64,000 bases of DNA from positions 89,611,836-89,675,835 of the forward strand of contig NC_088295.1 of assembly GCF_032854445.1 (NCBI RefSeq), in the 5' to 3' direction. A model generated the notes under the pieces. That model did not search any database, was not told the origin of the DNA, and saw only the letters and a list, made by a program, of their open reading frames with translations. This document shows positions 2,960-50,544 of the stretch, piece after piece. Position numbers and translations under genes: made by a program. The stretch is from Liolophura sinensis. Its lineage: Eukaryota; Mollusca; Polyplacophora; Chitonida; Chitonidae. Position 1 is the first letter of the stretch. Each line of letters opens with the position of its first letter.

Positions 2960-3620
2960 GGCTTGCCTCATATTCCTGTTTTATAGATATTACCGTTATC
3001 TATAACTTGTTTTTCTGTATTTGATAACATGATCCCCTCAATTGTCTTCTTGCCTTTATTTAAAACCTGGTCCCGTGGTTCTTTTTTTGGACCACCCCTC
3101 CCTAAGTATTGGCGCTGTAACCGCGCTTTAGAGGGTTGTTTTAGTGTTTTTCTTCATTATTATCGCCTATGTAGAATATTGCCCAAGTTGTCTCGGCATC
3201 TATAACGTTATTCCCTGTGGTTGTTTACAGGATCTCACCGAATATTACCATGATCTTCCGTTTTTGTTCGAATGAACTAATGTAATCGATATTGCCTTCG
3301 AGCAATGTTTATAGAGAGTTCCTTGGTTTTGTGTCCTGACCACCCCACTGACAGTTGCCCTTACGGTGGTGTCTATAATAAATGTAATAATTTGCGTATT
3401 GCGGCAGTAGCCAAGTCTGTAACATAACCACCGTGCTTTTGTCCATATAAATGATGCCACTGAGTATTTCGACTATAACAGTATCTGTAACATACCCCGG
3501 TTGTATTGGTCTGTAGGGCCTACTGATGCACCTAAATATTGTCTTCGTAACCATGTATGTATTGTATACCAGTTGTATTTGTACGTACAGATGATGCCCC
3601 TGAGTATTGCCGTTATTGCT
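2960..3620. repeat. Decayed ~70-bp tandem array running into a start codon
   Basis: Loosely repeated units contain variants of 'ttgtatttgt...gatgccNctgagtattg'. The clearest pair is 'atgatgccactgagtatt' at 3451 and 'atgatgcccctgagtatt' at 3591, 140 bp (two units) apart. The last unit overlaps the first codons of the 12-cysteine gene. Similarity falls off upstream, so the left edge is approximate. Confidence 0.5.
3446..3451 (+). promoter_or_regulatory. Possible TATA box of the 12-cysteine gene
   Basis: TATAAA lies about 140 bp before the ATG at 3591, inside a unit of the decayed upstream array. The next unit has a different sequence at this place. No transcript support; the assignment is speculative. 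Confidence 0.25.
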
Positions 3621-6600
3621 CTGTCAGTCCTGGGCCTAGTGTCCGGCGAGGACAGCTGCTTTGCCACCGCTTCTGACAAATGTGAAAACTTCAACAGGGG
3701 TCGGATTTCTACAGTGATGAATGGCGGAATCGTGGATTACACAGCTGCCTGTGAATCCATCAAGGTGAGCCATTACACAAGGCCTTTTATTCCTCCTTGT
3801 GAGAGAAGGGGAATCTGTCGGGTGTAGAAATGGTGGAATTGTAAGGCAGATGGAGACACAAATGTACACAGTATTACTTGTACAATTTAGTACAAATGGC
3901 CAAATGGCAAAATTACACCGCATAAATAAGCAGATAGGCTCCATGTGGAAGTAACTACATACATTGTCATGATTGGTTGATATTTAGTGATTATGACATT
4001 TCAGAAATATAAGGTCCATTGCCAATGTGACAATATGTGTTGAGAAAAGTTTAACTAAATGGTCAAACTATACTTACTAGTGCTCCCAACTTATCTTGTT
4101 GATAGCCTATTTTCATCGGGGTAATATGTGTGACCAAGTGTCACTCTGTCGTCACTGCTCATTACCCTCCATGCTGTTGTCTTTTTTGTGTTTTACTTTA
4201 TATCTGTTTTAATGTTACCTAAAACTCATGGTTTTTTGTTTTACTTTATACCTGTTTTAATGTTATCTAAAACTCATGGGTTTTGTTTTTCACGTACAGT
4301 GTGATTACCATGAATATATACATTCCACCCATTCACTTAAAAGTTGCCAGGTGTGACTTCGTGATTAATCCATGAGTTACTTAATGCTCTTCACACAGGT
4401 GTACTTAAAAGAGGAGACTGTGGCTTCCTCGCTTGGCGTTCAGCTTTAAGGGGTTAGTGCAATGACTAGTGAACCCGTCTCAGTGAAGCTGCACTAGATA
4501 AAAGAGCGGTGCAAATCCGTCCTGCAACAAGGAGGCATATTACACGTACATACACTCTAATGACTCCTTCGTCGTCATATAACTGTAAAATTGTTAAGTA
4601 CGACGTTGAACCCTAAGCACTCACTCACTCATTCACTCACTCACAGGGGTGTACTGTAAACAACCAGCTGTCGATTTCACAGATACTGTATATACCTCTG
4701 TCTAGTGTTGAACTAGATACTTGATGCTTTGGTTGTGTAATGGACATCATAAATCTCCACTCAGATAGCAAATGCCAGGGCCTAACGATGGTCAACTATA
4801 AATTCTTTCACCTTTCAGTTGTCGTGATCCAGGGTAATTTAGTAATTTGTTGTCTGGAGGGTTTGCCTGCAGCTCTCTTTGATCTCTGGCACCACTGCTC
4901 AAGGCAGTCTTTGCTAATAGAACTACAACTGATTATATCCAGATATCATTCCACATACCAAGGGCTTGATTACGTGTTAATGGGCATGCCTATTACCAAC
5001 AGATATGCTGGATACCTTGCATGCAACTCGCTGCTTTTATATTTACATGTTGAGAAACCCTGCTGTTCTTCAAGTGCACATTAATAATTGTTTTCAATAG
5101 AAATCTTAAGTTGATTTCATGGAATCGCTGAATTTTATTTGATTTATTGCATATATTAAATATCCACTGACAGCCTGATAGCTTTACTAAGGGATTTTAC
5201 ACTTCTACGGCGGCGGTCATTTTTATGGCACGAGGAATTGCGTAACTACTTATGCCTATATACATGTGCATGTAAATTGAGAATTTGAACAGAATTTGAA
5301 CAGAATTTGTTGTATAGCCTCTCGAACCATACGTTTCAAAACAGTTGACTAGAATCTTGTTAGAAATTTTAATCGTGGGCATTCATTTGGTTCTAAAACT
5401 GTAGAGTCCCTCCCTGAATTGGTCGCTTGGGATGTTGTTCTTGCTGAAGAGGAATGACCAGTGATGATGTATTGTCAAGCTGTATGGTGGTTTTGTCCGC
5501 GAAGCTTTGTGTCAGCAACTTGTTGTTTTCGTTTGGAAGGCATTGTATTATAAATAATGTCCTTTTGTCCTGACGTTTCCTCCGGGTTTACGATGGAGTT
5601 ATTCCAAGTGATGATTTACATTTACTTTAAGTCGAGAGGTACGTATGTAGTGGTTTTCCTCGGCGGCTTTAAGTCAGAAGGTGTTTTTATTGACCCATCC
5701 TGGATCTCTCGGGTTTGCATCAGCAGTTGTTTCCATTGAAGGTTTCCTCCTTCCTCTGTCGGCTTTAGTCAGAAGGTGTGTCAATTGATGATTTCCTCCG
5801 GGCGGTTTTTCGTCAGGAAGTATATCAGTTGGTATAGTGCGTGTTGGCCTACGGCTGAAATACATTTCACTAGGAATGTCAGTAGGTGGTTTCCTTCGGA
5901 ATGATGTCCAAGGAATAGCAATTGTTGGTTTCCTTCGGTCTCTGTTAGTTTTACTCCAGCCATAAAACTGGCCTCGTGGTAGAATTGAAAACAGCATGAG
6001 TGCAGCGAAACTTATGAACGTATCTGTTTTCACTGGAACGTTGTCGTTTACTGTTTGGCCTGTAGAAACGAGTGGCGTGTGGGATCGAGGCGGAATGTGA
6101 AGAGGGACCCTGGGACCCAACGGACGACTTCCTGTCCTACATGTTACAATTCACGGAGGAGAGTGGGTTGTGTGGTGGAGAGAGTCAAGGTTAGTCATTA
6201 CCTGTCTTGAATCTTCTACGGGAAGATTACAGTTCGTATAGGAGAGTCGGTTGTGTGGCGGAGAGAGTCATGCTAAGTCATCACCTGTCTTGGATCTTCT
6301 ACGGGAAGATCACATTTCGCATAGCAGAGTGGGTTTTGTGGCAGAGAGTCAAGGTAAGCCACCATCTGTCTTGAATCTCTTACAGAGAGGTTACAGTTCA
6401 TGGAGGAGAATGGGTTGTGTGGTGGAGAGAGTCAAGGTAAGTCATCACCTCACCTGGATCTCCTACACGGGAAGATCACATTTCGCATAGCAGAGTGGGT
6501 TGTGTGGTAGAGAGAGTCAAGGTAAGTCATCACCTGTCTTGAATCTTCTACAGGGAGATTACAGTTCGTATAGGAGAGTCGGTTGTGTGGCGGAGAGAGT

Positions 6601-7707
6601 CATGCTAAGTCATTACCTGTCTTGGATCTTCTACGGGAAGATCACATTTCGCATAGCAGAGTGGGTTGTGTGGCAGAGAGAGTCAAGGTAAGTCATCATC
6701 TGTCTTGAATCTCTTACAGAGAGATTACAGTTCATGGAGGAGAATGGGTTGTGTGGCGGAGAGATTCAAGGTAGGTCATCACCTGTCCTGAATCTGTTAC
6801 TGGGAGATTACAGTTCACCGAGGAGAGTGAGTTATGTGGCTAACAGAATCAAGGTAAGTCATCACCTGTTCTGAAACTCCTAAAGGGAATCTACAGTTCA
6901 CGGAGGAGAGTGAGTTATGTGGCTGACAGAATCAGGGTAAGTCATCACCTGTTCTGAATCTCCAAAAGGGAATCTACACTTCACGCAGCAGAGTGGGTAG
7001 TGTAGGGGCGAGAATCAAGATAAGTCATTTCCTACAGGGAGACTACATAAGGCCGCCCTTCTGTCGAATCATGTGGGTTGGAAATTAAAACAAATCTTAC
7101 CTCGCGACAAATGCATTAGACTACACAGGCCTACCTCGCTGCTCTCCGAGAACACAACACACAATGTTTCAAGTGTCATATAAAAGACCGAAAGATTGTC
7201 AGTGTTATGATTGCTATAGAAGTTTAACAAGAAAACGTCCCACATCGCCTGAACAACAACTGTGTTCTTGACAACTGTGTTCCTGGCGATATTGTCATAA
7301 GGGTACGGCTTCCACTTGACTAGTCACCACAATAACGCCTACATACTACCACTGTGGGGTCAGTCCTATCCAAACCTACTTCTTTCAGTTGTTCTATTAA
7401 TTGTTATATGTTTTTCTCTTCCCGTGCTTGGCTTTCAGTCAGTGAATGTGGACGAAGGGTGTCTCAGAATTGCCTTAACGACCTTGTCGTGGGCATGAAA
7501 GGCAAGGATGCCTGTTCCTATTACGGCGACTACGCGGCTTGTTTGATCCGGGAGACGGTGGGCTGTGATGATGAAACCCTCATGATCGTCGCCACTCTGA
7601 TGATGGACCAGCTAGCGGATAATTACCCCACGGTGGTGGGTGGAACAACCACAGCCAGCTGTCCCAACTGGAGCACCAAGTACGCCAAGTTTGTTGTTAA
7701 GAAATAA
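3591..7707 (+). CDS. Small secreted 12-cysteine protein, three exons, family not recognised
   Basis: Exons 3591-3764, 6066-6189 and 7439-7707 join in phase (0, then 1) to give 188 residues. Exon 1 starts MMPLSIAVIALSVLGLVSG, a clear signal peptide, so the product should be secreted. Exon 2 uses acceptor 'ggcctgtag' and donor CAAG|gttagt; exon 3 uses acceptor 'ctttcag' and ends KYAKFVVKK with a stop inside AATAAA. The mature part has 12 cysteines and appears internally duplicated: Cx7C, a spacer ending DYTAAC, then Cx8C in the first half; Cx7C, a spacer ending DYAAC, then Cx7C in the second. This looks like a disulphide-rich helical module found twice. I do not recognise a named family and assign no function. 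Intron 2 is mostly an array derived from exon 2. The first of the two starting ATGs is used here; the second is equally possible. Confidence 0.75.
4405..4645 (+). mobile_element. CACT-tailed tRNA-derived SINE, 5' truncated
   Basis: Shares with the fuller copies near 7859 and 20442 the body words 'cctcgcttggcgttcagc', 'gtgcaatgactagtgaacc' and 'tcgtcgtcatataactgtaa', the end 'ttaagtacgacgtt', and the closing simple repeat (CACT)n. The tRNA-like head is absent. Confidence 0.8.
5560..5960. repeat. Decayed ~50-bp tandem array upstream of exon 2 of the 12-cysteine gene
   Basis: Recurring words include 'gtttcctccgggcggttt', 'ggctttagtcagaaggtgt' and 'gtcaggaagtatatcagttgg', spaced about 48-52 bp. 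The word 'ggctttagtcagaaggtg' loosely resembles the 3' splice site of exon 2 (ggcctgtag|AAACGAGTGG), but the match is weak. Confidence 0.45.
6386..6436 (+). other. Candidate cryptic cassette exon, 51 nt, phase 1-1
   Basis: Preceded by 'ctcttacag' and followed by gtaagt. Read in phase 1 after exon 2 it would add ERLQFMEENGLCGGESQ (17 residues) without shifting the frame. No stop is present. Whether it is ever spliced in is unknown. Confidence 0.35.
6720..6770 (+). other. Candidate cryptic cassette exon, 51 nt, second copy
   Basis: Same structure as the copy 334 bp upstream: 'ctcttacag' before, gtaggt after, 51 nt, phase 1-1. It would code a near-identical 17-residue insert differing by one residue (Ser to Ile). 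The donor is slightly weaker. Confidence 0.3.
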
Positions 7708-21725: not shown

Positions 21726-24700
21726 ATGCACTCTAAACCACGGGTCGTGTTGTTGATGTTTACGATAGCGCTTCTTATCCACGTGAATGTCAGTACGGGT
21801 AAGCTAAAAGGATTTTATTCTTTGTATAAGGCAAATTCTGAATATATATTTGCTCTACAATAGGCCAGATGTGTTTCAAACCAAAATCGGGATCTGACTC
21901 AGACGGTCAAGGAGCTGTCTTGTTGATAGTGTCAGACAGAAGGTTTGCCAAGAGCCTGTCGAAGGTCGGTGGTTTGATCGTTGTAATAGTTTTTTCTGCC
22001 TATAAAAATGACCAACATCATATATATTCTTCGACACGTCGCTAACACCAATCAAATAAATATTTATTTATTTATTTGATTAGTGTGTTACGAGGTACTC
22101 AAGACTATTTCACTTATACGACGGCGGCCAGCATTATGGTGCGAGGAAACCGGGAACAGCCCGGGTGAAATTCATGACCATCCGCAGGATGCTGCAGACC
22201 TTTCCACATGCGGTCGCAGAGGAAGCTAGCATCAGCTGGACTTGAACTCCCAAGAACTGCCTTGGTAAGAGGCTCCTGGGCCATATGCGCCGCGCTGGCG
22301 CATATGGTCACGGAAGGGCCCAATCAAATAAATAAACAAATAAACATAAAAGCACAAAGCTGGTTATTTGAGAGATGTTCGTATAATCAAGTTCAGCCAT
22401 TTGTACGAAACATCTGCAATGTTAAAAAAAATGTTTGCATTATTATAGAACTTTTCTAATACCTCATGGTATTTACATTTGCGCTTTGGTTGAATTATTA
22501 ATGTTTTCGTTTAAAAATTCAGAAGCCCATCAGAGTTCGTTCAGCGAATCCAGATCTAGTTGTGTCATACAACTATCCGCAAATTAGTTATGTCTAGATA
22601 GCCTCTTCACAATAGTTCTGTACGATGATTTAGAGTTAATTTCAACAATTGTCATTAAAGATCTGGTGTTTTGTAAACTTCAAACTGTTATCAGCAACAT
22701 CATGTAGTTTTAAACACTTCTGTGCGTTAAAAGTTCTCTTTAACATATTGTATATGTAGTGTTATAGTTCTTTTTAACGTAATGTAGCGGCCTAGATCTT
22801 GTAAATGTAGCCTCATTGTTATATTTAACATTTTGTAACGCCATAACTCTCTGATGATTTACCACCATAGTTCTAATTAACACGATGTAGCATAGTTTTC
22901 TTTGCAAGATGTAACGTTGTAGTTCTTTTATCATAATGTGGTGGTATAGTTCTCTTCAACGCTGCGTTGTGTTGTTGCGTTGATGTTCTCTTGTAACACA
23001 ATGAAGCTTGCCAGTTCTTTTCACATGATTTTGCAGGATAGTTCTCTTTAACGGAATATAGCGTCAGTTTCCTGTCGTTGCTGAAATTTTCGAGCACAGC
23101 ATGCCGTAGCACCGTAGTGCTGATGTTAATCAGCTTACATAATAGCATAGCATGGTACTGATTCTGAAGAGTTTGCAACATAGCATGAAGTACTACCGAT
23201 TCTGATGAGTTTCCTGTTTGGTGTGGTGTAGTGCTAATTGTGACCATTTCCCGTAGCATGGCGTGTAGTACCGATTCTGAAGAGTTTCCTGTTTGGTGTG
23301 GTGTAGTACTAACCGTGACCATTTCCCGTAGCATGGCGTGTAGTGCCGATTCTGAAGAGTTTCCTGTTTGGTGTGGTGTAGTGCTAATTGTGGCCATTTC
23401 CCTTAGCATGGCGAAAAGTGCCGATTCTGAAGAGTTTCCTGTTTGATGTGGTGCAGTGCTAATTGTGACCATTTCCCATAGCATGGCGTGTAGTGCCGAT
23501 TCTGATGAGTTTCCTGTTTGGTGTGGTGTAGTGCTAACTGTGACCATTTCCCGTAGCATGGCGTGTAGTGCCGATTCAGAAGAGTTTCCTGTTTGGTGTG
23601 GTGTAGTGCTAATTGTGGCCATTTCCCATAGCATGGCGTGTAGTGCCGATTCTGAAGAGTTTCCTGTTTGGTGTGGTGCAGTGCTAATTGTGACCATTTC
23701 CCATAGCATGGCGTGTAGTGCCGATTCTGAAGAGTTTCCTGTTTGGTGTGGTGTAGTGCTAACTGTGGCCATTTCCCATAGCATGGCGTGTAGTGCCGAT
23801 TCTGAAGAGTTTCCTGTTTGGTGTGATGTAGTGCTAATTGTGGCCATTTCCCATAGCATGGCGTGTAGTGCCGATTCTGAAGAGTTTCCTGTTTGGTGTG
23901 GTGCAGTGCTAATTGTGACCATTTCCCATAGCATGGCGTGTAGTGCCGATTCTGAAGAGTTTCCTGTTTGGTGTGGTGCAGTGCTAATTGTCACCATTTC
24001 CCGTAGCATGGCGTGTAGTGCCGATTCTGAAGAGTTTCCTGTTTGGTGTGGTGTAGTGCTAATTGTGGCCATTTCCCTTAGTATGGCGAAAAGTGCCGAT
24101 TCAGAAGAGTTTCCTGTTTGATGTGAAGATTTCACAGTTCTATATAGTTCTTTGTTCAAGCATAGTGTTATATCAGTTTTGAACAGAGCCCGCCGCCTGA
24201 TTGACGGTGAAGACATGGTGGACGGTCTGCCCACGGTGGGCGTGTTGGCCTATAAAAATGAGCGCACCCAGGCCAGGCCGTATTTCATATTGTGTACCTT
24301 GGTTCTACTGGATAAAGACTGGGTCCTCACCAGCGCTCACTGCCTGTAAGAGTATAATTATCTTGTGCTGTTAATATTTTAACCAAGTTGTTTTCTATTT
24401 ATTTATTTATTTATTTATATATTTATTTATTTAATGATCTGATTGGCGTTGAATATGGAGGCTATACATAATGACTTTTCACGTATAAGACTGTGGTCAG
24501 GTTTATGGCTGGAGGTAACCGACGTGCCCGGAGCATGCGGCCGCCCTTGGTCAGGTACTTGACAAATCTTCTGACTTAAAGCCACTGCCACGCTTCTTGC
24601 CTATTCTTGGATTCACCCTGTGTAGGAAATAATGTGTCTTATCCATTCAGTATTATTTGGGTTTATTTTGTTGCAAATCTGGGAAATAGTATAGGCTAGA

Positions 24701-27700
24701 AGTAGTCAGTTAATGAAAGAAAAACGTATTGTTCGTATCTAAAGGAGAATGCTAAACCGTCTGCGCCAAATATCGTCAGCCCTTGCAAGTTCAGAAGTGG
24801 GGTTTTGCTTTAAACATTGGACAAGTTTAATTAGGCCAGCACACCTGGTTATTGTTCCGCGTATTCCTTACAGGGATGAATCGGCCACCCCTCTCAGGGA
24901 GGGTGAGACTTTGTATATTGTTCTGGGCCTAACAGATAACAGCTGGGCGTATAGTCCGAGCGACGTGCAGGAGAGAGGTGTCTTCGAGCAGTCACAGGTA
25001 CGTGTATGCTATGTAAGGTTGAGAATATGCACACTATGGGTGAGGTATGCACACTGTGAGTGAGGTATGCACACTGTGAGTGAGATATGCACACACTTTC
25101 AGTGAGGTATGTGTACACATCTCGTGAGTGAGCTGCTTATACCGCCAACAGTATGTCTCTGATTTGAAATGAGAGCTCATGTCATGAGTAGTATACCATG
25201 AGGGTTATAACTTACCGGAAGTTGTGTGACATACATTATAGACCTTTAGTTACAAGTTACAAGTTTAACTTGCAACTTGTAACTTCAAACTAGAATAGGT
25301 AAACTAATTATAGTCTGAAGTTAAAAGTTGCAACTTGTAACTAAAGATCTCTGATGAGAGGGTTGTAACTTTCCGAGAATGGTGTGACATACGGCGAGAG
25401 CGTTGTAACTCACCATGGGTGGTGTGACTTACACTGACAGTGTTTCAACTTACCGTGAATGGTGTAAGAGAGTTGTAACTTATCGTGAGTGCTGTTACAT
25501 AGAACGATTGGGTTGCAACGGTGGTATGACATATTGTAACTTATCGAGAGCTTGCCGTAGGTGTTGTGACATATGGTGACAGGCTTGTACCTTACCGTGA
25601 GTGCTGTGACATAAGGTGGGAGGGTATTAACTCGCCATTGTGAGCGGTTGTAACTTACCGTGAGTGGTGTGACGTACAACGATTGGATTGTACCTTTACC
25701 GTGAGTGGTGTGATTACAGTGAAAAGGCTGTAACTTACCGTGAATGGAGTGGCGTACAGTGAGAGGGTTGTAACTTGCGCTGAATTATGTGACATGCGAT
25801 AAGCGATGTGTAGCTTACTGTTACTGGTGTGATATGTGGTGAAAACGTAACTAATAGTGGGGCTTATGACAAGTGGATCATAACTTACCGTGTGTAATGG
25901 GATATACACACGCATTGTGAGTGAGCTGCAGCATGCGGTAAGTAAGAGTTCCCACCTGGGGTTGAGGTGTTCAAAATAGATGACCATCCAGTCGAGGCCG
26001 TCTTGTCATCTCGGTCGCTTCGCGACCCCTGTGACACCTCGGCTGTGTATCATTTAGCCTGAACACCTCAACTTCAGGCTGTAATTGACTTCCACAGTGG
26101 TTTTGTTCTTTGGCAAGATTTATTCGTTTCATGAAATCGCAGTTTTACCGATTCAAGTCGGACGAATTTTTCTAAATATTAAAATTCAGTCTTAATTAAG
26201 ACATGTGACGCGTATGTATAAGCTTGTAAAACTATATATTTTACTAATTTTAAGAAGCCAAAGTAGGTTTAGGAAAACATGCGATGAAACATTGACACTG
26301 TTTATGGCAAATACATCTGTGTGTATATCTCTGAAGCTGTCGAAATGAACAATGGCTATCCGCCATATTGATGTGATCTTATAAGAAGCTTTTAAGATGT
26401 TATCCATTGCACTCGGTAAGCATTGCACAGGTTTACCACATACGATAAATTCGTATTATCGCTTGTGTTCCCATAGACCAACTTGGTTAGTTTTTAAAAG
26501 AACACAAAAAAATGTTAGCTTAAACTTGCCTGAAAGAATGTTGAAAATTTCTATATTTATAGAGCCTTCAAACGCGTTTTGCCAGCAGAACTTGATCTGT
26601 TGAGGGACTCAAGGGAAATGATATTTTCTCAACACGGTAATTTCTCTGAACAAATGCCAAAGATGAAAAAGTATGCCCAGCAATGTTCTGTGTACTACTA
26701 TACAGATACGTGCAACAACTCATTTAGAAGCTTTATTAGATATTTTCTGATTATTGCAAATAACAAATGTGCTTGAAAAATAAATCCAGCAGTTCCACAG
26801 TAATTTAATCCACAAAACTAAAAATGGTAACATGCCAGTGTTTAGTTTTTTTTTAAATAGTTGGGACGAAAGGCGTTATACTCGACGCGATGCTGTTGTC
26901 GTCGTTGACCGGTTTCAGTACATGAAAGATAGTACGATGTTATGATTATGGCCTTCCGGATTCCATATAAAGCTGTAACGGGACCAGCTTTCTAGTGCTT
27001 AGCAGAAGCAAGAGAGAACTACCCAATAGTTCAGATTGTAGATAGCTAGATAAGGGGAATTTAGGGTCCAATTTCAAATTCCGGCGAGTGAAACAGCCAG
27101 TTTTTAAAAAGAAATTAGAACTGCGAAACTAGTACGTCACTTGAAAACCCGGTATGTATTACTTGAACAGCGAATACGTCACTGGAACACCAGTTATAGG
27201 TTACTTGAACACCTGTGGCTCCGCGCTAACAATGGCGCCAGTGTATATGGCCACCCAGTTGATCCTCGGTGAAATGTCACCTTTGTCCCTCTTTGTCTTC
27301 CTAGCATCCTGAGTACTGTGCACGCTTTCTTCTCCACCACGACATCACCTTGATGAAAGTGTCTATACCATTCACGTTGAATGACCGGGTTCAGCCGATA
27401 GAGTTGCCACCTGATGACATAGAGGACAGTGAGACGGGAACCAAGTGTAACATTGTGGGCTGGGGAATAGAAAACTTCCCGAGTAAGTTTGTTTTGTTTG
27501 CTGAAGGTTAGAAAGCCTCGGAGGTGAATATTCATTGTGGGCTGGGGAATAAAAAGCTTCCTATGTAACTATGCATTGTGGACTAGAGAATAGAAAAGCT
27601 CCCGAGTAAGTATTCATTGTGGGCTGGGAAATACAAAGCTTCCAGCGTAAGTATTCATTGTGGGCTGGGAAATACAAAGCTTCCAGCGTAAGTACGCATT

Positions 27701-30700
27701 GTGGGCTGGGAAATACAAAGCTTCCAGCGTAAGTATGCCTTGTGGGCTGGGAAATACAAAGCTTCCAGCGTAAGTATGCATTGTGGGCTGGGAAATACAA
27801 AGCTTCCAGCGTAAGTATGCATAGTGGGCTGGGAAATACAAAGCTTCCAGCGTAAGTATGCATTGTGGGCTGGGAAATACAAAGCTTCCAGCGTAAGTAC
27901 GCATTGTGGGCTGGGAAATACAAAGCTTCAAGCGTAAGTATGCATTTTGGGCTGGAAAATACACAGCTTCAAGTGTAAGTATGCATTTTGGGCTGGAGAA
28001 TAGAAAGCTTCCTGGGTAAGTATTCATTATGGGCTGGGGAATACAAAGCTTCCTGATTAAGTAGGTATTGTGGGTCGGTGTATAGAAGGCTTCCCCAGTA
28101 AGTATGCATTGTGCGCTGGGGAATAAAAATCTTCCCGAATAAGTATGTATTGTGGGCCAGGGAATAAAAAGCTTCCTATGTAACTATGCATTGTGGACCA
28201 GAGAATAGAAAGCTTCACGAGTAAGTATGCATTGTGGGCTCGGGAATACAAAGCTTCTTGGGTAAGTGTGCATTGTGGGCTGGGTAATAGAGCGTTTCAA
28301 GGCTTCCCGAGTAAGTGTCCTCTGTGGGCCGGGGAATACAAAGCTTCACTAGTATGTGTGCATAGTGGACCGGGGGATACAAAACTTCCCGCGTAAGTAT
28401 GTATTGTGGGCTAGGGAATAAAAAGCTTCCCGATTAAGTATGCATTGCGGACCAGGGAACAGAAAACTTCACGAGTAAGTATGCATTGTGGGCCAGGGAA
28501 TAAAAAGCTTCTTGGGTAAGTGTGCATTGTGGGTCAGGGAATAAAAAGCGTCTTGGGTAAGTGTGCATTGTGGGCCAGGGAATAAAAAGCGTCTTGGGTA
28601 AGTGTGCATTGTTGACCAGGGAATAGAAAGATTCACGAGTAAATATGCATTGTGGGCCGGGGAATAAAAAGCGTCTTGAGTAAGTATGCATTGTGGGTCA
28701 GGGAATAAAAAGCGTCTTGGGTAAGTGTGCATTGTGGAACAGGGAACAGAAAACTTCACGAGTAAGTATGCATTGTGGGCCGGGCAATAGAAAGCTTCCC
28801 CAGTAAGTATGCATTGTGGGCTGCGGAATACAAAGCTTCCGGAGTATGTATGCATAGTGGGCTGCGGAATACAAAGCTTCCGGAGTATGTATGCATAGTG
28901 GGCCGGGAATACAAAGCTTCCTGAGTATGTATGCATTGTGGGCCGGGGAATAAAAAGCGTCTTGAGTAAGTATGCATTGTGGGTCAGGGAATAAAAAGCG
29001 TCTTGGGTAAGTGTGCATTGTGGAACAGGGAACAGAAAACTTCACGAGTATGTATGCATAGTGGGCCCGGGGAATACAAAGCTTCCGGAGTATGTATGCA
29101 TAGTGGGCCGGGGAATACAAAGCTTCCGGAGTATGTATGCATAGTGAGCTGCGGAATACAAAGCTTCCGGAGTATGTATGCATCATGGGCTGCGGAATAC
29201 AAAGCTTCCGGAGTATGTATGCATAGTGGGCCGGGAATACAAAGCTTCCTAGGTATGTATGCATAGTGGGCCGGGAATACAAAGCTTCCTGAGTATGTAT
29301 GCATAGTGGGCCCGGGGAATAGAAAGCTTCCCGAGTATGTATGCATAGTGGACCGGGAATACAAAGCTTCCAGAGTATGTATGCATTGTGGGCTGAAGAA
29401 TAGAAAGCTTCCTGAGTATGTATGCATAGTGGGCCGGGAATACAAAGCTTCCGGAGTATGTATGCATAGTGGGCCGGGGAATACAAAGCTTCCGGAGTAT
29501 GTATGCATAGTGGGCTGCGGAATACAAAGCTTCCTAGGTATGTATGCATTGTGGGCTGAAGAATAGAAAGCTTCCTGAGTATGTATGCATAGTGGGCTGC
29601 GGAATACAAAGCTTCCTGAGTATGTATGCATAGTGGGCCGGGAATACAAAGCTTCCTAGGTATGTATGCATAGTGGGCCGGGGAATACAAAGCTTCCTAG
29701 GTATGTATGCATAGTGGGCCGGGAATACAAAGCTTCCTGAGTATGTATGCATAGTGGGCCCGGGGAATAGAAAGCTTCCCGAGTATGTATGCATAGTGGA
29801 CCGGGAATGCAAAGCTTCCTAGGTATGTATGCATAGTGGGCCGGGGAATACAAAGCTTCCTGAGTATGTATGCATAGTGGGCCGGGAATACAAAGCTTCC
29901 AGAGTATGTATGCATAGTGGGCCGGGGAATACAAAGCTTCCGGAGTATGCATGCATAGTGGGCCGGGGAATACAAAGCTTCCTGAGGAAGTGTGTTATGT
30001 GACGTGGTGAACAGAGAACTTCCAGTGTAAGTATGCACTTTGGACTGAAAAAAATAACGCTTTTTATGTGGTTAAGGTGGAGTACTGGGGAATTCCATGC
30101 TCCCAGTAGGTATAGGCACGGGCTGCTAGGCAATAGAATGCTTTCTGTGTGAGTCAACACGGAGGGCTGGGGAATAGAAGGCTCCCTTCAAGTATGTGAG
30201 CCAACACGGAGGGCTAGGGAATGGAAGGTTTCCTATCTAAGTCAACACAGGCGGCTAGAGAATGAAACCCTTCATATGTGAGTCAACACGGAGGGCTAGG
30301 GAATAGAAGTTTTCCTATCTAAGTCAACACAGACGGCTAGAGAATGAAACCCTTCATATGTGAGTCAACACGGAGGGCTAGGGAATAGAAAGTTTCCTAT
30401 CTAAGTCAACACAGACGGCTAGAGAATGAAACCCTTCATATGTGAGTCAACACGCAGGGCTAGAGAATATAAGTCTTCCTATGTGAGTCAACACAGAGGG
30501 CTAGGGAATAAAAATCTTCTTATATTTCAAACTGAGGGAAAGGGAATAGAAAGCTTCATGTGTGAGTCAAGACGGAGGGATAGGGAATAGAAAGTTTCTT
30601 GCATGTAAGTGACAAGATGAGGGATAGGATTGAAAAGCTTGCTATGCGAGTCATGACAGAGGGATGGGGAATACAAAGCTTGTAATGTGTCAAGACGGGT

Positions 30701-33148
30701 GGTTATAGATTAGAAAGCGTTTATGTATCAAGACGGAATTAGGCTTTAATAGAAAGCTTTAAGTCGACCGTGAGGCTGGAGAAAAGAAACTTTTCGAGTG
30801 AGTCTGTTTCCCTTTCCATTTCACGGAGTGTGTTGGAGAATCCTTCAGGTGAATCGATTTTCCGTTTTTAGTCGACAGTGTGGGCTGGATAATAGAGAGT
30901 CTCTCGGGTTAGAAGGTGCTCTTTCCTTTCCTGTATTAATAAATCAATATACAAAATTCATTAATTTTCTTGATTGGGGTTTTACGCTGCACTCAAGAAT
31001 ATTTCACTAATACGACAGCGACCAGCATTATGGTAAGTGGGAAGGGGTGGGGGGGCTGGGCTGGACTCGGCGAAAACCCTATTATCCACAGGCTGCTGAC
31101 ATGCCTTCCCGTACCACAGGGGAGAAAATTCCGTATACTGACCTCACTTGAATTATAATATGCTATGACTTCAACATTTTCACTACGTTACATTCAAAGA
31201 ATCTTGAAAATCAACATATATCTATCCTGAAACATGTCTGTATTTTTCTTCATGAAGCGAATTTGAAGTATGTTTCACAACTTATATTCCTAGATTAAGG
31301 TACTAAGTAAACTGCTCTCGTTTTTATTTTATATGTAGTTACCGAAGAATCGTTCCCTCGCTATATTAAGCAAGGTCGGATGAGCCTGGGAAGTTGTGAA
31401 AACCAGTTTGGAAATTTACTGGGAGATGATCACCTCTGTGCCGTCGGGACAAGCGTCACGCCTTGCAGTGTAAGTTGTATTTTGTAAAGATTAAACTTAC
31501 CAAAAGTGACGCCGGGTAGGGCAAGTCGTACAGTAAAGTTATCCAGCCTTGGGGCGTGAATTCCAGATGCCATCAGATGCCAAACCAACCACTGTAAGCC
31601 ATGACGTTTTAGATATAGGTGTACATACCAGATACCAAGCCATGCAGCGTCAGGTATACATGTATATTAGATACCAAGTCGTGCAGTGTCAGGGATATTT
31701 GTATAATAGATACCAAGCCGTGCAGCGTCAGGGATACGTGTGTATTAGATACCAAGCCATGTAGTGTAAGGTATACTTGTACATTTGATACCAAGCCATA
31801 CAACATCAGATATACTGCACGTGTATATTAGATACCAAGCCTTGTAGCGTCAGGTATACGTGTACATATTAGATAATAAACCAGCGTTTGGGGTACGTGT
31901 GCATTGAATACCAAGCCATGAAGCGTCGGGTATACGTGTATTTTAGATGTCAATCCGTACAGTGTCAGGGATACGTGTACGTATCAGATATAAAGTCATG
32001 TGGCGTCAGGATACGTGTATATTAGATACCAAGCCATTTAGTGTCATGTATACGTGTATGTTAGATACCAAGCCGTGCAACGTCAGGGACACGTGTACAT
32101 TAGATACTAAGCCGTGCAGCGTCAAGTATACGTGTATATTAGATTACAAGCAATGCAGCATCAGGGAAACGTGTACGTATTAGAGACCAAGTCATGCAGC
32201 GTCAGAGACACGTGTATATTAGATACCAAGCAATGCACCGTCAAGTATACGTGTACATACTGGATACCAAGCCATTTAGGGTCAAGTATACGTGTATATT
32301 AGATACCAAGCCATGGAGCGTCAGGTATACATGTATATCAGATTCCAAGCCATGTAGGGTCAAGCATACGTGTATATTATACACCAGACCTCATTTTTTT
32401 GAAGCTTGCTTAATAAGTAGGCTTTATCTAAGTGATTTTCATATCGGCAACTTGCTTGCCATGGTACATGTAGTTAACGGCTTACTTAGCTAAGGGTTCT
32501 TCATGAAGCCAGAAGATAACCATGCCAAACCAAGCACTGTAAGCTGCTTATTTGTGATTATTCTTTGTCGGTGATGGTCAGTTCTGCAGGCGGCGCAGAT
32601 AAGATATGCCAGCCAAGCCATGATGTCAAGCCGTGCGACGTTACCAGATGAGCACAGTGCAGAGTCAGTTGTCATATATCAAACCCTGCACCTAAAGCTA
32701 TCTGATGAAGCTGTGCAGTGCAAGTTACATGTATCTGATGTCAAATAGTGCAATGCAGGTTATCTGATGCATAAGCGTATATCACTTATCAGCCAAAAGT
32801 CGTATAAGGTTAACCTCTGGATCATACAAGGTAAGTTACTGGAAATGTTGGTGACCGTACGTGTGGTTAAAGTCACTGGGTCACGCGGGACGTAAGCTCA
32901 ACATTAAACGTATAAATACGTGAAACCATGAAACCATGAGTCTAATGAAGTTATTCGTTTGCTAACACCCACAGGGAGACAGTGGAGCCCCTGTGTTCTG
33001 TGATATCGGCGGAAAGTCTTATTTTATCGGCATCGACTCCTTCGGGCAGTTTGAAAACTGCGAGGACAACCCATTACAAGTTCTCACCCGAATTAGCTAT
33101 TTCTTGGACTTTATTGAGGACACCATGGAAGAGGAGACAGACGACTGA
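21726..33148 (+). CDS. Secreted chymotrypsin-fold serine protease P1, six exons
   Basis: Exons 21726-21798, 24177-24345, 24835-24997, 27305-27482, 31339-31469 and 32975-33148 give 295 residues, with intron phases 1,2,0,1,0 as in P2. Signal peptide MHSKPRVVLLMFTIALLIHV; probable activation before LIDGE, after RARR. Catalytic His79 (TSAHC), Asp148 (HHDITLMKV) and Ser241 (GDSGAP) are all present, so the enzyme should be active. The trypsin-189 position is Thr and the SWG stretch is SFG, so specificity is not trypsin-like; the substrate is unknown. The C-terminus lacks the usual GVYT but keeps the final helix (RISYFLDFIED) and adds an acidic tail. Acceptors of exons 2 and 3 were chosen because they restore alignment with P2 (V-LNRARRL against V-LHRVRRL). 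An in-frame upstream ATG at 21621 lacks a signal peptide. Introns 1, 3, 4 and 5 carry minisatellites. Confidence 0.87.
22021..22062 (+). mobile_element. Tail fragment of an ATTT-family SINE in forward orientation
   Basis: 'atattcttcgacacg' followed by 'aacaccaatcaaataaata' matches the 3' end of the family in plus orientation. The adjoining full SINE is in minus orientation and its target duplication is taken from this tail, so the two lie tail to tail. Confidence 0.6.
22048..22334 (-). mobile_element. Full-length ATTT-tailed SINE inserted in the tail of an older copy
   Basis: Complete body and head in reverse orientation, flanked by a 15-bp direct repeat CCAATCAAATAAATA (22048-22062 and 22320-22334). 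That target sequence is itself the 3' tail of the same SINE family. It lies in intron 1 of protease P1. The tRNA-like head contains the imperfect palindrome 'catatgcgccgcgctggcg'. Confidence 0.88.
22725..23150. repeat. Decayed ~35-40-bp repeats in P1 intron 1
   Basis: Variants of 'tagttctttttaacgtaatgtag' recur irregularly. The stretch just before exon 2 of P1 ('tagttctttgttcaagcatag' at about 24145) is of the same type, so the 3' splice-site region of exon 2 may belong to this family of repeats. Confidence 0.45.
23150..24125. repeat. 75-bp minisatellite in P1 intron 1
   Basis: About 13 units of 75 bp containing 'gattctgaagagtttcctg', 'ttggtgtggtgtagtgc' and 'catttcccatagcatggcg'. As 75 is a multiple of three and the unit has no stop in some frames, long ORFs run through it on both strands (453 codons reverse, 221 forward). 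The period alone explains them. It ends about 50 bp before exon 2. Confidence 0.93.
24391..24560 (-). mobile_element. Diverged ATTT-family SINE fragment in P1 intron 2
   Basis: (ATTT)n followed by 'gattggcgttgaatatg', 'cttttcacgtataagactg' and 'gtaaccgacgtgcccgg', in the order seen in intact copies, with many changes. The head is missing. Confidence 0.6.
25026..25110. repeat. Short ~20-bp tandem repeat after P1 exon 3
   Basis: 'ctgtgagtgaggtatgcaca' repeated about four times, starting about 30 bp after the exon 3 donor (CACAG|gtacgtgtatgc), which it partly resembles. Each unit holds a gtgagt word. Confidence 0.7.
25190..25960. repeat. Degenerate ~40-bp minisatellite in P1 intron 3
   Basis: Units read approximately 'gagagggttgtaacttacc' plus 'gtgagtggtgtgacatac'. 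Around 17 units can be followed, with variable lengths. A hairpin element interrupts it near 25240-25350. Several units contain a gtgagt donor-like word. Confidence 0.8.
25240..25350. mobile_element. Hairpin (MITE-like) insertion inside the intron 3 array
   Basis: The left arm 'agacctttagttacaagtt' and the right end 'aacttgtaactaaagatct' are inverted copies, with similarity extending about 35 bp inward around a short loop. The flanking sequence on both sides is the 40-bp array, so this is an insertion. It has no coding capacity and its family is unknown. Confidence 0.6.
27120..27215. repeat. Short ~28-bp repeats upstream of P1 exon 4
   Basis: 'tacgtcacttgaaaaccc', 'tattacttgaacagcg', 'tacgtcactggaacacc' and 'ggttacttgaacacc' form three to four loose units. 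Confidence 0.6.
27452..30010 (+). repeat. 41-bp minisatellite derived from the end of P1 exon 4 and its donor site
   Basis: The last 31 nt of exon 4 (attgtgggctggggaatag... to cttcccga, coding IVGWGIENFP) plus about 10 nt of donor (gtaagtatgc) form the 41-bp unit. It is repeated roughly 60 times downstream. Most copies keep a donor-like word: gtaagt in the first third, mainly gtatgt from about 28850 on. Units between 27640 and 27900 are almost identical, showing recent spread; groups with an extra or missing base occur later. As 41 is not a multiple of three, frames shift from copy to copy, so the long reverse ORFs here are not genes. Confidence 0.95.
30010..30930 (+). repeat. Decayed continuation of the exon-4-derived array
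   Basis: Units such as 'cggagggctagggaatag' plus 'ttttcctatctaagtcaacac' keep the 'gggct.gggaatagaa' core but have drifted. About 18 units can be followed, the last near 30880 ('gtgggctggataatag'). Some form an 82-bp higher-order pair (30230-30450). Confidence 0.8.
30958..31135 (-). mobile_element. ATTT-family SINE fragment in P1 intron 4
   Basis: 'gattggggttttacgctgc', 'actcaagaatatttcac' and 'accagcattatgg' match the family body in reverse orientation. It ends before the tRNA head, about 200 bp upstream of exon 5. Confidence 0.8.
31560..32790 (+). repeat. ~39-bp minisatellite in P1 intron 5, resembling the end of exon 5
   Basis: The well-preserved core (31620-32390, about 20 units) reads 'agataccaagccatgcagcg' plus 'tcaggtatacgtgtatatt'. 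Exon 5 ends CAAGCGTCACGCCTTGCAGT|gtaagttgtatt. The unit shares CAAGC, the GC.TGCAGTGT core, and in some copies gtaagg at the donor position ('gccatgtagtgtaagg' at about 31757). Flanking looser units (31565-31620 and 32510-32790) contain 'cactgtaagcc' and 'gtgcagtgcaagtt'. Confidence 0.8.
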
Positions 33149-37779: not shown

Positions 37780-39792
37780 ATGAGTGTGGACAAAGAGCCA
37801 GCATTCAGATCGACAGTGCGGGCGTCCGGGTTAGGCGAAGTTTGGACGCACAGTAATGACGACAGTAAATTCCGGCAGTTCGGCTGGAGATGCACTACAA
37901 ACGAGAGCTCGTTCTGCAACGGTACTCTCGTGGGAAACTGGAATGAAGAAAAGTTTGACACAAACGAAGTGAGGAAAGCCGAACGTTTGCCTTCTCAGGT
38001 AGGCCCACTGTTGTGGTATTTGGAAAAAAGAAATTCAAAACCTGCAAGACCTGTAGTTTGCCCTTTTTAGCCTACATGCCTAACATATGAAAGAATATAT
38101 GAATAGGCCCCAGTGCGGACATACTGTACATGAAAGTTAGGCCTATGTACATAGGCTACATTCCGATGGATATTATTTATGTCACTCGTAAACCAGCACT
38201 GACTGCTTATTAATACATAGCTGTTTCCATATCTGATGTCCCGGTGCCGTATCGGAGTTGGCTCCATTTCAGGATATATAAGCCTACCTAACCAATTATA
38301 AGTTTTGAGCATCCGGGTTCTTCGTGAGTTCTGCAGTGTAGAGAACAACAGGACAATGAAACTATCACATCTGAAGGTTAGACACATTAAGATTAAGAAA
38401 TTGTAATTTGCTACCTAAAATACAGAAGGTCCAAATGAGAGTAGACGCATGGTTTTCTTCTGTGACGTTGCATTGCGTGTGTACTTCATAGGCCTATATG
38501 TTTTATGAGCACACATACATGGTTAATTGTGACGTAATAAAGGGAAGAATCCATGAGTTCACAGCTTTGGACTGTCTTGATGCAAGCCGGAAGGAGTTTT
38601 ATGAGTCCCCCATTAAGGTACACCAAAGTTACGTCATGGTAAAGGATTGTTGATCGAGTGCACATGTGCACGAGCTAACACTATGGCGAAACTACAAACT
38701 ATCAAACTACATTATATATGGGCATATTTACCCTGCAAGTACATGTAATACAAAATTTTTACATGCGTTGGAAAATCAGTTGTATCTTGGAGACATATAT
38801 CGCTAACTTCTTAAATCTTTATTTATTTATTTATTTATTTATTTATTGTAGCTCAGAAGCACGTTTTAACTTCTTTATTTTCAGTACGACCATTATTATG
38901 AAAGGACTTATGGGGTCAGTTACAACACAGTACCACGTGAAGTTCCGACGGATCTTAAACACCTGAAAGGTACCGTACATTATACATTATATATAATGTG
39001 GTGGAAAGGGGCCTGTAAAGTTGACTACATGTTTAACTGATATCGTATTCAACAGTGTGCAGTAATTTAAAAAGAAAAAATTTAAAGCGGCAAGAAAAAA
39101 AGTTCAGTGCAGGCTGATATACTCAGTAATGAAGAATGCATCTACCAGTGGGCGTATGGACATAGATATATACTCAGATCCTATAGCTTGTGTTTACTTT
39201 CTGTAGGCTTTAGCCCACAGCTGATATCAGTAACACAGCTGAAGACGAACGTTTTTTAGGCTATATGCCTATCTACTTCATGTCCGCATGTCAGTCAATT
39301 CACCACACGTCAAATATTCATGCTCACGGCGTTTGATTAACAAACAGGTTTGGCCGGCCATGGTATTCATGGTTTCATATAAAGGATAGTTTTACGTTAG
39401 ATCCCACAACCTGTAAATGTATGGATATACACCAAAGCCCATAGATCTATATGCCCTGTATTGCGTCATAAGTAATATAAATAGCAGGCCTGTGTTGCAT
39501 GGAATAGAAAACATGCATCTGCTTATAATTGCACGAAGTTTCTGCTGAGAATTCTCTACTTTCTGTTGTGATGGCTCACTTATGGGTCTACTCATTCTTA
39601 TCTTTCTTCTTACCCTCAGCCCCGTACCCACACGCCTTTCCTGGTCACCAGCCGGAGCTCGACTCTCGGGCCATGAAGGCCGTCTATAACAGCTGGCAAA
39701 CGACGAATAGAATGGACTATATCCATCCGGACGTTCGGCGCGCCCCGGTCCAGACGAAGACCGCAACAGTCAGCCCGTCACAGACAAGCTAG
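37780..39792 (+). CDS. CFAP68: Cilia- and flagella-associated protein 68 (C11orf1 homologue), three exons
   Basis: Exons 37780-37998, 38885-38969 and 39620-39792 (phases 0, 1) code 158 residues; the human protein is about 150. Diagnostic stretches in order are GEVWTHSNDDSKF, FGWRCTTNESSF, GTLVGNWNEEKFD, LPSQ|YDHYYERTYGVSYN and FPGHQPELD, all close to what I recall of the vertebrate protein. CFAP68 is a microtubule inner protein of axonemal doublets, so the product should act inside motile cilia and sperm flagella. It is cytosolic, with no signal peptide or membrane segment. Splice sites: CAG|gtaggc, ttttcag|TAC, AAAG|gtaccg, ccctcag|CC. The C-terminal tail after MDYIHPDV is poorly conserved. 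A half X-box lies about 150 bp upstream, in keeping with RFX control of ciliary genes, but this is only suggestive. Confidence 0.9.
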
Positions 39793-47480: not shown

Positions 47481-47504
47481 ATGAGTAGTTTAAGTGCATT
47501 ATGA
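47481..47504 (+). promoter_or_regulatory. Upstream ORF overlapping the capicua start (ATGA)
   Basis: ATG at 47481 opens a seven-codon frame (MSSLSAL) whose TGA at 47502-47504 overlaps the main ATG at 47501-47503. It lies within the same exon, after the acceptor at 47469. Such an arrangement can reduce or couple translation of the main frame. Confidence 0.55.
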
Positions 47505-50135: not shown

Positions 50136-50544
50136 GTGAGTACAGTTACATGTACACATTAAAGTCTGCCCACCTTTATAGATGTAGTTTATGTTACTAG
50201 TACTCTGTACAATCGTAGCTTTTTACAGTGTACCCAGCATCTACATGTATCTTCACCAACTGATTCATCATAAAAGTCATCAGAATGTGTTGTTCACTGT
50301 TTTCATAACTGGTTTATTCAAGAAATTGTGAAAAAAGGTGGTTAGGAAACTGGTGAGGAACTACATGTAGAGGTTTACACCTCCCATTTTAAAAAGTACT
50401 CACCAAAATACTTCAGCTTGCATTTACAATATCTCCTCAAGATCAATGTTTAATCCATTATTGTAATCTTTCATCTTTCTCTGTGTAATGATTGGCGACC
50501 TGTCTTATACAGAATGGTTTATCTCCTGACTGCATGCATTGCAC

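What the first reader, a model, noticed from the sequence alone, without database searches (positions are those of the whole stretch)
6129..7038. Exon-derived array containing ready-made in-frame cassette exons (12-cysteine gene intron 2)
Eleven 83-bp units repeat about 60 nt of coding exon 2 plus its donor. In at least two intronic copies (6386-6436 and 6720-6770) the coding-derived sequence has turned into a 'ctcttacag' acceptor. This leaves 51-nt segments that start and end in phase 1 and have no stop, each able to add a 17-residue insert with one extra cysteine. This looks like exon birth by tandem amplification.
Basis: partly seen in the sequence, partly recalled or inferred. Interest (0 to 1): 0.88.

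Follow-up and report, generated by a model that had tools for sequence, protein, structure and literature searches.

The report
Splice-boundary minisatellite with decoy mini-exons
The end of a gene's second exon, together with its splice signal, has been copied ten times into the following intron, and two of the copies happen to look like complete small exons; a second gene in the same stretch of DNA carries the same kind of array, so this is probably a recurrent by-product of DNA duplication rather than a proven new exon.

Summary
The array is real: one authentic exon-2 end plus ten intronic copies (6144-7019, partial tail to about 7045), mostly spaced 83 bp. Two copies (6386-6436, 6720-6770) are open, phase-1, 51-nt cassettes whose splice sites score above those of exon 2 itself.

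Two details of the finding are wrong. The copied exon piece is 46 nt, not about 60. The 'ctcttacag' acceptor comes from the intron-derived 37 nt, not from coding sequence. The two cassettes are one lineage doubled by a block duplication (U1-U3 copied as U5-U7), not two births.

Nothing found points to selection for use. Eight of ten copies carry stops, variants fit neutral expectation, and intron 1, with no exon-derived array, also holds a chance 51-nt cassette.

Most useful new result: a serine-protease gene in the window shows the same thing. The last 32 nt of its exon A plus 9 nt of intron recur in 64 further copies (41-bp unit). There the exon end encodes the protease GWG motif, so the exon came first.

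Closest known kind: amphioxus 'mirages', minisatellite-like duplications of intron-exon boundaries, for which recruitment of copies as exons was already proposed. Cassette use needs long-read RNA; I put it at about 20%.

The parts
3591..3764 (+). Exon 1 of the 12-Cys secreted-protein gene (signal peptide; ends phase 0, donor GTGAGC)
   Evidence: open frame MMPLSIAVIALSVLGLVSG...; joins exon 2 and exon 3 in one open frame of 188 aa with 12 Cys
6066..6189 (+). Exon 2, 124 nt, ends phase 1; donor AAG|GTTAGT scores 7.85
6144..6189 (+). Exon-2 end (46 nt) that seeded the array
   Evidence: alignment to all ten copies; no significant homology upstream of 6144
6190..7019 (+). Ten intronic copies U1-U10, each 37 nt intron-derived plus 46 nt exon-derived (U2 lacks 2 nt, U4 has 2 extra); copy ends 6272, 6353, 6436, 6521, 6604, 6687, 6770, 6853, 6936, 7019; partial tail to about 7045
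6386..6436 (+). Candidate cassette in copy U3: 51 nt, phase 1-1, open; acceptor 8.47, donor 11.97
6720..6770 (+). Candidate cassette in copy U7: 51 nt, phase 1-1, open; acceptor 8.47, donor 9.99
6190..6436 (+). Block U1-U3, duplicated as U5-U7 (6522-6770)
   Evidence: U1/U5 4, U2/U6 2, U3/U7 5 differences of 83
7439..7707 (+). Exon 3 (acceptor 8.25, starts in phase 1, ends TAA)
27305..27482 (+). Serine-protease exon A (catalytic Asp region to GWG motif), ends phase 1 at donor GA|GTAAGT
27451..30681 (+). Second exon-end-seeded array: 41-bp unit = last 32 nt of protease exon A + 9 nt intron; 64 further copies at 26/41 or better lie between 27533 and about 30916; TRF splits the region in two
31339..31469 (+). 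Protease exon B; the 39-bp array at 31619-32386 may derive from its end (weak)
   Evidence: p 0.03; p 0.10; no excess
32975..33148 (+). Protease last exon (GDSGAP ... TGA)

Best explanation
This is a minisatellite seeded across an exon-intron boundary. An 83-bp segment (last 46 nt of exon 2, donor, first 37 nt of intron 2) was tandemly duplicated and then amplified by slippage or unequal exchange, including a three-unit block duplication (shown by alignment; mechanism inferred). If the first donor keeps working, every new copy lies inside the intron and leaves the protein unchanged, so such duplications escape purging (inferred). Copies inherit a donor and an open phase-1 stretch from the exon. 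A YAG in the intron-derived half gives some of them an acceptor, in frame about one time in three (inferred). Copies U3 and U7 are the one surviving lineage with acceptor, open frame and donor together. Most likely the array is spliced out whole (6189 to 7439) and the cassettes are used rarely or never.
For: Ten copies in register, 46+37 structure. Block duplication U1-U3 to U5-U7. A second, independent array of the same logic in a protease gene, whose exon end encodes the GWG region and whose joined exons score E = 5.5e-22 to Pfam Trypsin and align across both junctions to the best solved chain, 1dlk_B (one alignment printed; 461 distinct sequences matched); its copies. A simulation of neutral decay from a consensus unit leaves 17-50% of copies with acceptor, open frame and donor at 20-8% divergence; observed 2 of 10 copies, one of about five lineages. 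No codon-position or synonymous bias. Amphioxus 'mirages' have duplicated splice signals, yet Adh3 data and RT-PCR suggest regular splicing (PMC3087553, passages read).
Against: By simple PWM the two cassettes' sites score above the authentic exon-2 sites, and intronic donors beat the real donor in 7 of 10 copies, so non-use is not obvious from sequence. Two strict cassettes in one intron is itself uncommon: 3 of 300 Markov sequences, 0 of 188 stretches off the array. U3 is the copy closest to exon 2 (3 of 46 differences; the other nine copies 5-9). The same mirage paper says the copied signals could act as cryptic sites giving alternative transcripts. No homologues or RNA could be examined, so exon-first direction for this gene rests on the protease parallel.
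Confidence: 0.78

Rival explanations
1. Real exon birth: the U3 and/or U7 cassette is spliced into a fraction of transcripts, adding 17 or 34 residues and one or two cysteines to the secreted protein.
For: Both cassettes have acceptor 8.47 (exon 2: 6.18, exon 3: 8.25) and donor 11.97/9.99 (exon 2: 7.85); open and in phase. At least one equal-quality cassette was found in only 16 of 300 Markov sequences and 9 of 188 stretches off the array. Inclusion of both gives an even cysteine number, 14. Precedent for a new small exon from intron 2 of a gastropod gene for a secreted peptide: a 63-bp exon in Conus Tx3-KP01 (PMC3862624, passage; no repeat array is mentioned there).
Against: No sign of coding constraint. 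A single cassette gives an odd Cys count, 13. A similar chance cassette lies in intron 1 at 4300-4350. Known mirages were reported not to disturb splicing (PMC3087553, PMC3902484; passages).
Confidence: 0.2
2. Alternative-donor array: the weak first donor (GTTAGT) loses at times to stronger downstream copies. Any such read-through meets the TAG at once (...ESQG*), giving a truncated product of exons 1-2 with 6 Cys, or decay of the mRNA; the array would tune output.
For: Seven of ten copies have donors scoring 9.99-11.97 against 7.85 for the authentic one. Read-through gives KRVACG...GGESQG*. The human 6-16 minisatellite is titled as providing multiple splice donor sites (Turri 1995; seen only as a reference entry in PMC2572611).
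Against: The donor of the nearest copy U1 is dead (ATG|CTAAGT), so the first usable one is U2's at 6353, which would make exon 2 at least 288 nt instead of 124. No RNA evidence.
Confidence: 0.12
3. Array first: an intronic minisatellite was recruited as the end of exon 2, rather than the exon end being copied.
For: No homologue of the 12-Cys protein could be found to show that residues LQFTEESGLCGGESQ are ancestral (Pfam and PDB; the large protein database could not be asked).
Against: In the sister array the exon part encodes a protease motif shared with solved proteases, so exon-to-array is the direction there. Exon 2's end supplies the sixth of twelve cysteines (sequence; count of 12).
Confidence: 0.06

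Closest known systems
Amphioxus 'mirages' (Adh3, globins BflGb6 and BflGb9, TnC; PGBD5 similar)
   Same: Minisatellite-like tandem duplications of an exon-intron boundary, many units carrying splice signals; BflGb9 holds a duplicate of the 3' boundary of exon 2, the side seen here; the globin paper's Figure 7 legend already models a mirage unit being recruited as an exon (PMC3087553 passages; PMC3902484 passage).
   Different: Here two unrelated genes within 64 kb carry donor-side arrays of ten and 64 intronic copies, and one lineage has an in-frame acceptor, so it forms a complete 51-nt cassette. The species is not known to me; length polymorphism and splicing are untested here.
Human 6-16 (IFI6/G1P3) minisatellite with multiple splice donors (Turri et al. 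1995)
   Same: A repeat supplies several donors to one transcript (title only, seen as a reference in PMC2572611; the paper is not held).
   Different: Details of that repeat are recalled, not read; no acceptor-bearing cassette is known to me from it.
Human internal tandem repeats at exon-intron boundaries in segmental duplications
   Same: Repeats at the boundary can change splicing and form new introns (PMC2812944, abstract and passages).
   Different: Units average 30 bp repeated 4 times and half of the repeats lie in coding exons; here exon pieces sit in an intron.
Intron gain by tandem duplication (Rogers model; potato RdRp case)
   Same: Duplication of a piece holding a splice signal can remodel gene structure (PMC4974935, title and abstract start in listing; Rogers cited in PMC3087553).
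   Different: No new intron in coding sequence is shown here; the authentic exon-2/exon-3 junction keeps its phase.
New exon from intron 2 of a conotoxin gene (Conus Tx3-KP01)
   Same: A small extra exon inside an intron of a gastropod gene for a secreted Cys-rich peptide, shown in cDNA (PMC3862624, passage).
   Different: 63 bp, no boundary-derived repeat mentioned in the passage seen; not tested for relation to this gene.

Membership tests
Mirage-type boundary minisatellite | Tandem repeat whose unit spans an exon-intron boundary | tested here: met
   46 nt exon + 37 nt intron, ten copies; 32 nt exon + 9 nt intron in the protease gene
Mirage-type boundary minisatellite | Repeat units carry the splice signal | tested here: met
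   7 of 10 copies keep the donor GT; 55 of 64 in the protease array
Mirage-type boundary minisatellite | Regular splicing not disturbed by the copies | not testable with these tools
   No RNA data available
Mirage-type boundary minisatellite | Length instability between haplotypes | not testable with these tools
   One sequence only; the internal block duplication fits past instability
Tandemly duplicated alternative exons | Copies are whole exons with both splice sites and open frame | tested here: not met
   Only 46 of exon 2's 124 nt are copied; 2 of 10 copies have acceptor, donor and open frame
Tandemly duplicated alternative exons | Coding constraint on copies | tested here: not met
   9 syn, 18 non-syn, 3 stop among 30 distinct variants, near neutral expectation; small sample
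Minisatellite supplying multiple used donors (6-16 type) | Several repeat donors used in transcripts | not testable with these tools
   Strong donors present; use unknown
Intron gain by tandem duplication | Intron absent in orthologues, flanked by duplicated AGGT exon sequence | not testable with these tools

The most novel reading that the evidence does not exclude
In this genome, exon 3' ends with their donors recurrently seed minisatellites (two clear cases and one weak among five located donors in 64 kb), and these arrays act as a continuous source of trial exons: copies inherit frame and donor, need only an acceptor, and the U3/U7 lineage is an exon caught at birth and already included at low level.
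Probability: 0.15. Interest if true: 0.78.

Novelty: new member of a known kind. Interest (0 to 1): 0.45.

Why it matters
How new exons arise from non-coding DNA is usually studied with transposons (recalled). Boundary-seeded minisatellites give another route in which the donor, the reading frame and exon-like sequence come free, and only an acceptor has to appear. Two arrays in unrelated genes in one 64-kb stretch suggest that the process may be common in this genome and can be counted. If the cassettes are used even rarely, the array is a series of failed and successful trial exons in one intron; if they are not, it shows that strong-looking splice sites are ignored, a hard test case for splicing models.

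Tried and rejected
Coding origin of the acceptor: rejected; exon 2 upstream of 6144 does not match the unit beyond chance.

Independent birth of two cassettes: rejected; U3 and U7 are sister copies from a block duplication.

Selection on cassettes: tested by codon position, synonymous fraction and pairwise divergence of halves; nothing found, with small numbers.

Paralogues of the 12-Cys gene in the window: none of note by tblastn beyond the array, apart from a short match at the exon-1 start. Family: no Pfam match for exons 2+3 or the whole protein, no PDB match, no relative in viral contigs for the exon-3 peptide.

Other arrays as boundary-seeded: 11 regions (covering 12 of the 16 arrays I listed) were compared with their flanks up to 2 kb. 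Four exceeded all 60 shuffles on one flank or more: 18700, 23196 and 25362/25646 at 39-40 against a shuffle maximum of 22-25, and 25026 marginally at 24 against 22; none of these matched places was shown to be an exon end. The 39-bp array at 31619 against protease exon B gave p = 0.03 and 0.10, and 17 in its 5' flank against a shuffle mean of 17.8: inconclusive, leaning negative. The protease His exon end (p = 0.49) and the 12-Cys exon 1 end (p = 0.93) have no detectable copies in their introns. The Capicua-like and CFAP68 genes were not resolved to exon ends and so were not tested.

Enrichment: 2 of 5 located donors lie in the seed of one of 16 arrays; expected 0.05; P = 0.0014; leaving out the given array, P = 0.037 for one. 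The donors were located partly because arrays drew my eye, so these values flatter the case.

Branch points were not scored.

Control recount: the 196 stretches (11 with a strict cassette, 1 with two) included 8 that touch the array; without them it is 9 of 188, none with two.

Literature: eight searches were answered; one was rejected for a bad term. The two aimed at molluscs or gastropods listed three papers: the abalone paper PMC6905558 (passages) reports an intronic 27-bp minisatellite, not at a boundary in the passages seen; the Conus paper PMC3862624 (passages) reports a new exon, with minisatellites only in its references; PMC3902484 is the lancelet paper. No claim is made beyond these searches.
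Full report
Gene. A three-exon gene on the + strand encodes a predicted 188-aa secreted protein with 12 cysteines: exon 1 3591-3764, exon 2 6066-6189, exon 3 7439-7707, joined in phases 0 and 1. It matches no Pfam family (exons 2+3 alone) and no solved structure. The gene model is inferred from sequence; no RNA was available.

Array. Intron 2 opens with ten copies of an 83-bp unit, in register with the exon-2 end (spacings 83, 81, 83, 85, then 83 six times). Each copy joins 37 nt homologous to the first 37 nt of intron 2 and 46 nt homologous to the last 46 nt of exon 2. Ten non-overlapping copies match 6144-6226 at 51 to 72 of 83 ungapped positions; the best of 200 shuffles of the intron gave 39. 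Exon sequence upstream of 6144 has no significant counterpart in the unit (p = 0.10).

History. Pairwise differences over the unit are 4 (U1/U5), 2 (U2/U6) and 5 (U3/U7); all other pairs differ by 7 or more. A three-unit block was duplicated, and the two cassettes are one lineage. An AG at the acceptor place is present in 5 of 10 copies (U3, U5, U7 as CAG; U9, U10 as AAG), and the majority consensus reads CTCCTACAG there, so it is more likely old and lost in some copies than newly made in two (inference). U5 has the strongest acceptor (9.97) but a stop and a dead donor.

Cassettes. With thresholds set at exon 2's own sites (acceptor 6.18, donor 7.85), intron 2 has 4 acceptors, 7 donors and exactly two in-frame open cassettes, 6386-6436 and 6720-6770. 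Looser thresholds (3 and 4) give four, and (0 and 3) eight, two of these outside the array. At the strict level at least one cassette occurs in 16 of 300 random Markov sequences (two or more in 3) and in 9 of 188 window stretches off the array (two or more in none); at the loose level in 82% of 300 and 52% of 196 (the 196 include 8 that touch the array). Intron 1, which has no exon-derived array (a 48-bp array of about two copies lies at 4184-4289), also has one strict cassette of 51 nt at 4300-4350. The cassettes are thus good-looking and uncommon but not extraordinary. Given a unit that already carries coding phase and donor, they are expected: a neutral simulation leaves 17 to 50% of copies with all three features at 20 to 8% divergence, against 2 of 10 seen.

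Constraint. The other eight copies have a stop in the exon-homologous frame. Thirty distinct variants in the exon-derived part fall 10, 8 and 12 on codon positions 1, 2 and 3, and are 9 synonymous, 18 non-synonymous and 3 stop; expectation for random changes is 23, 70 and 7%. The open pair is no better conserved than two stop-bearing pairs. Against my reading, U3 is the copy closest to exon 2 (3 of 46), which could reflect constraint, conversion or chance.

Donors. Seven of ten copies keep GT, with scores of 9.99 to 11.97, above the authentic 7.85. Reading through the authentic donor meets TAG at once (ESQG*), so use of a downstream donor would truncate the protein after six cysteines.

Second array. 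The window also holds a serine-protease gene on the + strand: His exon ending at 24345, exon A 27305-27482, exon B 31339-31469, last exon 32975-33148. Exons A-C spliced score 5.5e-22 to Pfam Trypsin and align across both joined junctions to the best solved chain, 1dlk_B (the one alignment printed; chymotrypsin 1acb_E is second in the list). Exon B alone had no Trypsin match in Pfam; it rests on the joined protein. Intron A-B begins with a 41-bp array: the last 32 nt of exon A (encoding IVGWGIENFP) plus nine nt from the donor, GTAAGTTTG. Sixty-four further copies reach 26 of 41 identities; 50 shuffles gave none; 55 of 64 keep the donor GT. Because the C...GWG stretch is conserved across this protease family (recalled; seen in the alignment), the exon is older than the array. 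No strict cassette occurs in that intron. A third array, 39 bp at 31619-32386, may derive from exon B's end, but the tests are weak (p 0.03; p 0.10; no excess).

What is known. Boundary-spanning minisatellites were named 'mirages' in amphioxus. The globin paper reports repeats at the start of exon 2 in BflGb6 and a duplicate of the 3' boundary of exon 2 in BflGb9, says that Adh3 data and RT-PCR suggest regular splicing is not disturbed while cryptic use of copied sites is possible, and proposes that a unit may be recruited as an exon (PMC3087553, passages). PMC3902484 (passage) adds PGBD5 and cites Adh and TnC. Human repeats at exon-intron boundaries can form new introns (PMC2812944, abstract and passages). 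This finding is a new member of that kind, with the extra feature of a complete in-frame cassette lineage and a sister array nearby. I do not know the species; SINE-like tails recalled from molluscs suggest a gastropod, untested. If it is not a lancelet, the kind is wider than the two lancelet papers I saw passages of.

Verdict. Array and cassettes: real. Origin by boundary amplification: well supported. Exon birth: possible (about 20%), unproven, with nothing in the sequence that demands it.

Noticed in passing
27451-30681: 41-bp minisatellite seeded by the last 32 nt of a serine-protease exon plus its donor, 64 further copies found; a second boundary array in the window.
   Followed up: yes
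31619-32386: 39-bp array just after protease exon B whose unit resembles that exon's end (CCTTGCAGTGTAAG vs CCATGCAGCGTCAG); statistically weak.
   Followed up: partly
3451-3468: An 18-nt near copy (94% by blastn) of the exon-1 start lies 140 nt upstream of the start codon and reads MMPLSISTITVSV in frame.
   Followed up: no
47489-50200: Long open frame with DUF4819 (9.7e-15); I recall this as a Capicua domain.
   Followed up: partly
37792-38007: CFAP68 (cilia- and flagella-associated protein 68) exon, Pfam 1.5e-25.
   Followed up: no
23196-24125: 75-bp array, period a multiple of three, with long open frames on both strands (224 aa on +, 458 aa on -), directly upstream of the protease His exon.
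   Followed up: no
4300-4350: A chance 51-nt open cassette with strict splice scores in intron 1 of the 12-Cys gene, a useful control; it lies just after a small 48-bp array (4184-4289).
   Followed up: yes
25026-25776: Three short arrays (20, 40, 40 bp) in the protease His-A intron carry GTGAGT/GTAAGT words; no match to the His exon end (p = 0.49).
   Followed up: partly
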